DNA of 64,000 nt from Saccharomycopsis phalli (Eukaryota; Ascomycota; Saccharomycetes; Ascoideales; Saccharomycopsidaceae). Below are positions 21,723 to 28,230 of the stretch, in pieces (position 1 is the stretch's first letter; each line of letters opens with the position of its first letter). The DNA is taken from contig CP073214.1 of NCBI GenBank assembly GCA_020342235.1, positions 1,240,001 through 1,304,000 of the forward strand. Reading direction: 5' to 3'. The translations under genes and the position numbers were made by a program. The notes beneath the pieces are model-generated. The model was not told where the DNA came from. It searched no databases and worked only from the letters and a program-made list of their open reading frames with translations.

Positions 21723-22841
21723 ATGAATGGAGTCGTAAAAGGCATGTATCGTTGTTTCCACTTTAACCTTGTCAAGTTCCGAAAGGTGCATTCTCTGAGG
21801 GTTTGCCTGGATTCCATCCGCAGGTTGAAGGACGCCAAGCCATTTTCCGCGTTTCTTACAGACTCGTTTCAGAGGCAGCACAATTATTTACGGATTTCCG
21901 TAACCGAGCGATGCAATTTACGTTGCTTGTATTGCATGCCTGAAGAAGGGGTTGAGCTCTCCCCCAGTGATCAGCTTCTTAGCACCGACGAGATTGTACA
22001 ATTGAGTAAAGTGTTTGTAAGCCAGGGAGTGTCAAAAATACGGCTCACGGGAGGAGAGCCTAGTGTGAGAAAGGATATTGTGGAAATTTTTTCCCGGCTC
22101 AATGGTATTGAGGGCTTAAAAGAGATTTGCATGACGTCCAATGGGATAGCCTTGCAAAGAAAGTTACCAAAGTTGGTGCATAACGGCTTGACTGGACTAA
22201 ACCTCAGTTTGGATACCTTGGTGGATGGTAAGTATACTGTTATTACCCGTAGAAAGGGTCTTGGTAATGTGTTAAAATCATTGGATACGGCAATCGCCTT
22301 GAAGGTGCCAAAGATTAAGGTCAACTGTGTGGTGATGAAGAACTTCAATGAGGATGAGATTTTGGATTTTGTGGAGTTAACCAAGGACAGAGAAATCGAA
22401 GTGCGATTTATTGAGTATATGCCGTTTGACGGAAACAAGTGGAGCGACTCCAAGATGATCAGCTACAAGGAGATGCTACTGACAATCAGAAACAAGTATG
22501 GCGACTTGCTCAAGCAAGTTCACGACTCGGTAGGTGGAGAAACAGCAAAAACCTGGAAGATTGAAGGCTACCAGGGTAAAGTCGGTTTTATAACATCCAT
22601 GACCCACAACTTTTGTGGGAGCTGTACACGGCTTCGTATAACATGTGACGGTAATTTGAAAGTATGTCTCTTTGGCAACCATGAAGTGAATCTCAGGGAC
22701 ATTTTGCGGTCCCCAGACTATACCCCAGAAAAGTTGCTTGATGTCATAGGCATGGCAGTGAAGAATAAAAAGAAGGCGCATGCCGGAATTGGAGAGTTGA
22801 AAGATCTTCCTAATCGTCCAATGATTTTAATAGGCGGATAG
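21723..22841 (+). CDS. MOCS1A: GTP 3',8-cyclase (MoaA/MOCS1A), molybdenum cofactor step 1
   Basis: A radical-SAM enzyme that turns GTP into the 3',8-cyclised intermediate of molybdenum-cofactor synthesis. 372 residues from the ATG at 21723. The N-terminal ~50 residues are rich in Arg/Lys and almost free of acids, a likely mitochondrial presequence, as in other eukaryotes. The radical-SAM cluster is Cys64-x3-Cys68-x2-Cys71 (CNLRCLYC). The second 4Fe-4S site is Cys298, Cys301 and Cys315. TGGEPSVRKD binds SAM. The protein ends in the obligatory Gly-Gly tail (MILIGG, residues 371-372) directly before the stop. A consensus GTAAGT donor lies inside the coding sequence at 22228. The MoaC-like part follows 22 bp after the stop in the same frame. 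Confidence 0.93.
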   Translation: MNGVVKGMYRCFHFNLVKFRKVHSLRVCLDSIRRLKDAKPFSAFLTDSFQRQHNYLRISVTERCNLRCLYCMPEEGVELSPSDQLLSTDEIVQLSKVFVSQGVSKIRLTGGEPSVRKDIVEIFSRLNGIEGLKEICMTSNGIALQRKLPKLVHNGLTGLNLSLDTLVDGKYTVITRRKGLGNVLKSLDTAIALKVPKIKVNCVVMKNFNEDEILDFVELTKDREIEVRFIEYMPFDGNKWSDSKMISYKEMLLTIRNKYGDLLKQVHDSVGGETAKTWKIEGYQGKVGFITSMTHNFCGSCTRLRITCDGNLKVCLFGNHEVNLRDILRSPDYTPEKLLDVIGMAVKNKKKAHAGIGELKDLPNRPMILIGG

Positions 22842-22863
22842 TCTGGATGAACTAACAGTATAG
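22816..22863 (+). other. Candidate alternative intron joining MOCS1A to MOCS1B (48 nt)
   Basis: Removing 22816-22863 (donor GTCCAA, branch AACTAAC, acceptor TATAG) deletes RPMILIGG and the stop, and joins LPN-R-TRRYSTLSHIND in frame. The length matches the 37-50-nt introns elsewhere in the window. The acceptor half is convincing; the donor is weak. The other phase-compatible donor is GTAAGT at 22228. Confidence 0.4.
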
Positions 22864-23357
22864 GTACTCGGAGATATTCAACTCTTAGTCATATCAATGA
22901 CAAAGGAGAGGCCAGCATGGTTGATGTTGGCGGAAAGTCCATAACGCACCGTGTAGCGGTTGCCAGTGGAAAGATTATGTTCACCAATAAAGCTGTCAAG
23001 GAGCAAATACGAGCCAACAACAACAAAAAAGGGGACGTCTTGAGCACTGCTCGAATTGCAGGCATTCTCGGTGTAAAGCGGACGGCTGAGTTGATTCCGC
23101 TTTGTCACAATATATTCATTTCGAAAATTCGTGTTTTGTTTGACGATATTGATGATGGTATTCTAGTGACTGTCCAAGTTGAGTGCGATGGGAAGACGGG
23201 TGTTGAGATGGAGGCTTTGACTGGAGTGAATGTCAGCTTGCTTACGATATATGACATGTGCAAGGCTATAGATAAGAATATGGTGATGGGTGATATCAGA
23301 GTGCTAGAAAAGTTGGGAGGTAAATCTGGCGATTGGAAAGCTTCTGATAATATGTAG
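22864..23357 (+). CDS. MOCS1B: Cyclic pyranopterin monophosphate synthase (MoaC/MOCS1B), probably fused to MOCS1A by splicing
   Basis: MoaC completes the pyranopterin ring begun by MoaA. The domain is whole: KGDVLSTARIAGILGVKRTA, LIPLCHN, GKTGVEMEALTG, IYDMCKAIDK and GGKSGDW. The first ATG (22917) gives 146 residues, but the conserved MoaC N-terminus (LSHINDKGEAS, compare bacterial LTHIN..GEA) is encoded just upstream, in frame, with no ATG. It is preceded by a branch-like AACTAAC (22850-22856) and acceptor TAG (22861-22863). I infer that the MoaC part is normally read as a 3' exon starting at 22864 and joined in phase to MOCS1A sequence. Translation from 22917 alone would lack the conserved start. 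Confidence 0.85.

Positions 23358-28230
<4,873 letters not shown>

What the first reader, a model, noticed from the sequence alone, without database searches (positions are those of the whole stretch)
22812..22919. MoaA stop codon sits inside a candidate intron: a yeast version of the MOCS1A/MOCS1AB splice switch
The conserved MoaC N-terminus (LSHINDKGEAS) is coded upstream of the first MoaC ATG with no start codon of its own. It follows an AACTAAC branch point (22850-22856) and a TAG acceptor (22863). Splicing 22816-22863 (48 nt, within the 37-50-nt range of other introns here) removes exactly RPMILIGG plus the stop and fuses MoaA to MoaC in frame; retention gives MoaA with its essential Gly-Gly tail. 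Animal MOCS1 makes the same choice by alternative splicing. The donor GTCCAA is weak, which could itself allow both forms.
Basis: partly seen in the sequence, partly recalled or inferred. Interest (0 to 1): 0.82.

Follow-up and report, generated by a model that had tools for sequence, protein, structure and literature searches.

The report
Yeast MoaA–MoaC gene, probable splice switch

Summary
The anatomy is real. MoaA (21723-22841, ends NRPMILIGG-stop) and MoaC share one frame, separated by two in-frame stops. MoaC's conserved start (LSHINDKGEAS) is coded upstream of its first ATG, behind a well-formed branch point and acceptor (ACTAAC...TATAG, 22851-22863; 0.001 expected in a gap of that size). 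The leader RRYST just after the acceptor fits the mitochondrial MPP/Icp55 cleavage motif, present in 52 of 61 dissimilar linkers of annotated, nearly all fungal, MoaA-MoaC fusions. This fits the Neurospora nit-7 / animal MOCS1 kind: intron kept = MoaA; intron removed = fusion that delivers MoaC. That switch is published for Neurospora (PMC7232280).

GTCC-type donors show no excess genome-wide, whereas GTAAGT and GTGAGT do. The donor place implied by fungal fusions (G|GT of the first Gly codon) reads GGC here. A perfect in-frame donor (GTAAGTAT) lies at 22228 and would make a 636-nt intron. No RNA data and no DNA of related yeasts were available, so splicing is inferred.

The parts
21723..22841 (+). 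MoaA (GTP 3',8-cyclase) reading frame, 372 aa, ending NRPMILIGG-TAG; the start ATG is my choice of the first in-frame ATG
   Evidence: Pfam Radical_SAM and Mob_synth_C; frame
22228..22235 (+). GTAAGTAT, full match to the local donor GTAAGT, phase 1, 636 nt before the acceptor
22816..22821 (+).
22833..22841 (+). codons GGC GGA TAG (Gly-Gly-stop); the place of the donor implied by fungal fusions (G|GT) reads G|GC
   Evidence: fungal junctions
22848..22850 (+). second in-frame stop, TGA
22850..22856 (+). branch point AACTAAC
22860..22863 (+). acceptor ATAG
22869..22883 (+). codons for RRYST, which fits the MPP/Icp55 motif RX(F/Y/I/L)|(S/A)(S/T)
22864..23357 (+). MoaC exon (cyclic pyranopterin monophosphate synthase) with its stop; first ATG at 22917
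   Evidence: Pfam MoaC

Best explanation
This is the yeast's nit-7/MOCS1-type gene. One pre-mRNA is made from the MoaA promoter. If the intron ending at 22863 is kept, translation stops at TAG 22839-22841 and gives MoaA with its Gly-Gly tail (frame shown; expression inferred). If it is removed, a MoaA-derived N-terminus that carries the presequence is joined in frame to the MoaC exon (inferred). After import the chain is cut at RRY|ST by MPP with Icp55, which frees MoaC beginning STLSHIND (inferred); the attached MoaA part serves only as a carrier. The acceptor is well supported. Which donor is used is open: GTAAGTAT at 22228 (strong, far), GTCCAA at 22816 (weak, near), or another.
For: Branch point plus acceptor in the gap: 0.001 expected. 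MoaC coding upstream of its first ATG, with no start codon: among the 120 best-listed MoaC hits 118 have the MV[DNHR] anchor, and 116 of these have at least 9 residues with a His before it; the two exceptions are P0121 and P0141, whose longest contigs have the same lengths (12,618 and 6,252) as those of MoaA hits P0001 and P0004. RRYST after the acceptor: R-x-[FYL]-S is in 52 of 61 dissimilar fusion linkers against a shuffled mean of 7.0 and maximum of 17, and in 0.47% of random 7-codon stretches of this region. The phase-1 junction is the one implied by 102 of 109 annotated fusions. Published precedent in Neurospora. A Moco enzyme frame and MoaE are present in the genome.
Against: No RNA evidence. 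No good donor at a usual distance: of 15 phase-1 GTs from 22228 to 22855, only 22816 lies within 197 nt of the acceptor, and it is GTCCAA. The ancestral donor place reads GC. The MoaA N-terminus looks like a presequence only by composition (8 K/R and 1 D/E in 35 residues).
Confidence: 0.7

Rival explanations
1. Long-intron form: donor GTAAGTAT at 22228, acceptor 22863, 636 nt. Splicing discards the second half of MoaA; the product is the presequence, the first 168 residues of MoaA and MoaC (332 aa, 36.8 kDa). A case of the best explanation.
For: Only full GTAAGT in phase within MoaA. Phase-1 GTAAGT occurs 11 times (this one included) in 171,279 nt of 88 long frames, so about 0.07 are expected in MoaA. 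In Neurospora the A part of the fusion is lost after import, so half of it could serve.
Against: Far longer than the introns seen here (37-66 nt among nine GTRAGT...ACTAAC...YAG strings in 264 kb; one possible 144-nt case). Given Gly-Lys-Phe/Tyr, codon use alone gives GTAAGT with probability 0.165. Annotated fungal fusions keep the whole of MoaA up to NRPMILI in 109 of 109 with both anchors, which is how they were picked.
Confidence: 0.28
2. One reading: 48-nt intron 22816-22863 with donor GTCCAA, inefficient and so allowing both products. A case of the best explanation.
For: Right phase and a usual length; the only phase-1 GT within 197 nt of the acceptor.
Against: GTCC and GTCCAA show no excess genome-wide. 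The GT comes from the CGT codon of a conserved Arg-Pro, so the next bases must be CC; 13% of Arg codons here are CGT. In a fold of 22790-22870 the donor is paired to bases just before the branch point, though the fold is not better than shuffles (z 1.10).
Confidence: 0.2
3. No fusion: MoaC is translated on its own, from ATG 22917, from a non-AUG start, or from a separate mRNA with another first exon.
For: ATG 22917 has A at -3 and G at +4. No convincing donor nearby.
Against: A start at 22917 drops the leader that 116 of 118 anchored MoaC hits have and would leave RRYST and LSHINDKGEAS untranslated although conserved. In Neurospora, NIT-7B alone is not mitochondrial and does not give wild-type-like growth with NIT-7A.
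Confidence: 0.22
4. GC-AG intron 22834-22863 (30 nt) at the ancestral donor place.
For: Exactly the place and phase implied by the fungal fusions.
Against: In the short-intron pattern search 25 of 34 hits are 34-36 nt and 7 are shorter (the total of 34 does not exceed its control of 41). Donor to branch A would be 22 nt, against 31-57 nt in nine local introns. GCGGAT is a poor donor.
Confidence: 0.05

Closest known systems
Neurospora crassa nit-7 (NIT-7A / NIT-7AB); PMC7232280: abstract, passages, the Discussion and the second part of the Results seen
   Same: One gene; the retained intron codes the Gly-Gly and stop of MoaA; splicing fuses A to B; B is freed after import.
   Different: Its intron is 237 nt by the numbers 1460-1696 and is shown by cDNA. 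Here the acceptor is only predicted, the donor is unknown, and the frame from stop to branch point is 8 nt.
Pachysolen tannophilus fusion protein P0016 (a yeast gene model)
   Same: Fused MoaA-MoaC with RRMFST in the linker.
   Different: Junction NRPMILI|D, so the donor lies in the Gly codon; longer linker.
Animal MOCS1 (MOCS1A / MOCS1AB)
   Same: Alternative splicing chooses between MoaA with Gly-Gly tail and a fusion (known to me from memory and from statements in PMC7232280).
   Different: MOCS1AB is cut in the cytosol to expose an internal import signal, according to PMC7232280, which found no such thing for Neurospora. Primary papers not held.

Membership tests
nit-7 / MOCS1-type two-product gene | MoaA and MoaC adjacent, same strand, joinable in frame | tested here: met
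nit-7 / MOCS1-type two-product gene | MoaA ends in Gly-Gly-stop inside a stretch that ends at a 3' splice site | tested here: met
nit-7 / MOCS1-type two-product gene | a usable donor before the Gly-Gly-stop | tested here: inconclusive
   three phase-1 candidates, each with a fault
fungal fusions, donor at G|GT of the first Gly codon | first Gly codon GGT | tested here: not met
   GGC here; implied in 102 of 109 fusions
nit-7 / MOCS1-type two-product gene | both mRNA forms exist | not testable with these tools
   no RNA data
nit-7 / MOCS1-type two-product gene | N-terminal mitochondrial presequence on MoaA | tested here: inconclusive
   composition only: 8 K/R, 1 D/E in 35 residues
MPP/Icp55 substrate | RX(F/Y/I/L)|(S/A)(S/T) before the mature part | tested here: met
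   RRYST; motif as given in PMC8847149
MPP/Icp55 substrate | cleavage in mitochondria | not testable with these tools
   needs N-terminal proteomics
short GT-AG intron of this genome | donor GTRAGT | tested here: not met
   for the 48-nt form: GTCCAA
short GT-AG intron of this genome | branch ACTAAC and YAG close behind | tested here: met

The most novel reading that the evidence does not exclude
The fusion is made with the donor at 22228: one pre-mRNA gives either full MoaA or a half-MoaA that is only an import carrier for MoaC, cut off at RRY|ST in the matrix. The donor would be written in the codons of a Gly-Lys-Tyr of the enzyme, taken up after the donor in the Gly-Gly codons was lost as the intron shrank.
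Probability: 0.28. Interest if true: 0.65.

Novelty: new variant of a known kind. Interest (0 to 1): 0.42.

Why it matters
It would carry the retained-intron switch for the first Moco step from Neurospora to a yeast whose genome gave no Oxidored_molyb match (the nitrate reductase / sulfite oxidase domain), and show that the donor can move while acceptor, phase and cleavage site stay. Separately, the cleavage-like motif shared by most of the annotated fusion linkers examined gives a specific, testable site for the release of NIT-7B, which was seen in Neurospora without a named protease in that paper (the words peptidase, MPP and Icp55 do not occur in its main text).

Tried and rejected
Stop read-through: two different stops in frame, TAG and TGA. 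GC donor at the ancestral place: 30 nt and 22 nt to the branch A. Alternative first exon from ATG 21674 through GTAAAA at 21735: a weak donor and a 1129-nt intron; other non-MoaA-frame first exons were looked for only with donors matching GTAAGT in 4 or more places. RNA hairpin across the junction: no better than shuffles. Decaying gene: both frames are intact and a Moco enzyme frame is present. DNA of related yeasts: the one genome-contig scan gave 207 relatives, of which the 80 listed all bear bacterial titles as I read them; viral contigs were not scanned, and no tool here gave the DNA behind P0001/P0121 and P0004/P0141.

Literature: searches, open-licence papers only. In their listings I saw no paper on MoaA-MoaC splicing in a budding yeast and none naming a cleavage site in NIT-7AB; I opened only PMC7232280 and PMC8847149 (parts). 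Gray and Nicholls 2000 and Mayr 2020 are not held; Probst 2014 I know only as a citation.

Full report
Setting. The window lies at C3:1240001-1304000 of a genome of 14,148,124 bases in 8 contigs. It is a yeast by its short GTAAGT...ACTAAC...YAG introns and by the named yeasts among the best MoaA hits. The species is not known to me. The gene before MoaA has a COX6B domain and the one after MoaC has the domains of GCN2.

Observation. MoaA runs from ATG 21723 to TAG 22841, 372 aa, ending NRPMILIGG. MoaC is in the same frame. Between them are two in-frame stops and no ATG. The leader reads TRRYST-LSHINDKGEAS and then MVDV. Of the 120 MoaC hits listed (the best of 7,999), 118 have the MV[DNHR] anchor. 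Of these, 116 have at least 9 residues with a His before it, and the two without are P0121 and P0141 (P0216 and P0220 lack the anchor). These two stem from contigs of the same lengths (12,618 and 6,252) as MoaA hits P0001 and P0004. So the same layout probably occurs in two more yeasts; this is inference, as their DNA was out of reach and an ORF caller may choose a late start.

3' splice site. ACTAAC-N2-10-YAG occurs 24 times, this site included, in 528 kb of both strands (200 kb of neighbouring C3 plus the window), i.e. 0.001 in a 22-nt gap. Several of the 24 sit behind good donors and so are probably real introns.

5' splice site. Whole-genome counts with the same 3' end, against the pattern read backwards: GTAAGT 127 against 31, GTGAGT 53 against 12, GTATGT 24 against 21, GTCC 67 against 219, GTCCAA 9 against 19. 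The control is crude, since reading backwards changes the words, but the two GTRAGT donors stand out and GTCC does not. From 22228 to 22855 there are 15 phase-1 GTs. Only GTCCAA at 22816 is within 197 nt of the acceptor. Only GTAAGTAT at 22228 matches GTAAGT in full, 636 nt away. In 171,279 nt of 88 long frames there are 11 phase-1 GTAAGT, this one included, so about 0.07 are expected in MoaA. Given Gly-Lys-Phe/Tyr, codon use alone gives 0.165. So 22228 is suggestive and no more.

What other fungi do. From the MoaA and fusion searches 126 proteins of 540 aa or more were examined; 109 had both anchors and 17 were dropped (listed). In 102 the residue after NRPMILI is D, G, E, V or A, all coded by GNN; the other 7 read GG. 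This is what a donor at G|GT of the first Gly codon gives. The window has GGC there. Most of the 109 are gene models, not cDNA, mainly from filamentous fungi, with at least one non-fungal (P0330, starfish). A GC donor at that place would need a 30-nt intron. In the short-intron search 25 of 34 hits are 34-36 nt and 7 are shorter; the total does not exceed its control (41), so only the pile-up speaks for a lower bound near 34.

Linker. Of 94 distinct linkers of 25 or more residues, 83 hold R-x-[FYL]-S (shuffled mean 10.5, maximum 20 of 500 rounds). Of 61 that are less than 60% alike, 52 do (mean 7.0, maximum 17); nine do not, the starfish among them. In a few the first match lies far from MoaC. 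The motif is that of MPP followed by Icp55 as given in PMC8847149 (passages seen), which also mentions internal MPP processing in fungi and plants. The window codes RRYST at 22869-22883, directly before LSHIND. Random stop-free 7-codon stretches of the region hold the motif in 701 of 149,714 (0.47%). The exon therefore very likely begins at or before 22869, which fits the acceptor at 22863.

Mechanism. In Neurospora (PMC7232280) the unspliced nit-7 mRNA gives NIT-7A and the spliced one NIT-7AB; growth on nitrate needs both; NIT-7B alone is not mitochondrial; NIT-7B is freed from NIT-7AB after import. The window's gene fits: MoaA from retention, MoaC through a fusion, release at RRY|ST. Shown here: frames, stops, acceptor, motif. 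Inferred: splicing, donor, import, cleavage.

Need for Moco. The genome has a MoCoBD_1 match in a 1461-aa open frame that reads to me as a xanthine dehydrogenase (part seen), MoaE, two MOSC places and no Oxidored_molyb match. So the gene is probably in use, though not for nitrate reductase of the usual kind.

Verdict. The general idea is probably right. The proposed donor is unsupported and probably wrong. The principle is already published for Neurospora; what is new here is the loss of the usual donor place, the possible far donor, and the shared cleavage-like motif.

Noticed in passing
own genome G000: C6:1251405-1252100 (L025), C4:1394885-1395238 (L026), C8:441571-441906 (L027), C1:994675-995076 (L028): Moco-related places: MoCoBD_1 in a 1461-aa frame (xanthine dehydrogenase by reading), MoaE, and two MOSC matches, with no Oxidored_molyb match anywhere.
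   Followed up: partly
linkers of annotated MoaA-MoaC fusions (P0009-P0345): R-x-[FYL]-S before MoaC in 52 of 61 dissimilar linkers, an MPP/Icp55-like site that could explain release of NIT-7B.
   Followed up: partly
window 21674: An ATG out of frame with MoaA lies 49 nt upstream of the MoaA ATG; its frame overlaps the MoaA start and could act as an upstream reading frame.
   Followed up: no
window 23440-23520: Two near-identical A+T-rich copies of about 37 nt, head to tail, after the MoaC stop (seen by eye).
   Followed up: no
window 23788-28230: GCN2-like kinase whose translation holds a run of SEASE repeats.
   Followed up: no
window 9932 (+ strand site): ACTAAC...YAG with GTAAGT 144 nt upstream and a 258-codon open stretch after it: a possible intron longer than the usual 34-66 nt.
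   Followed up: no
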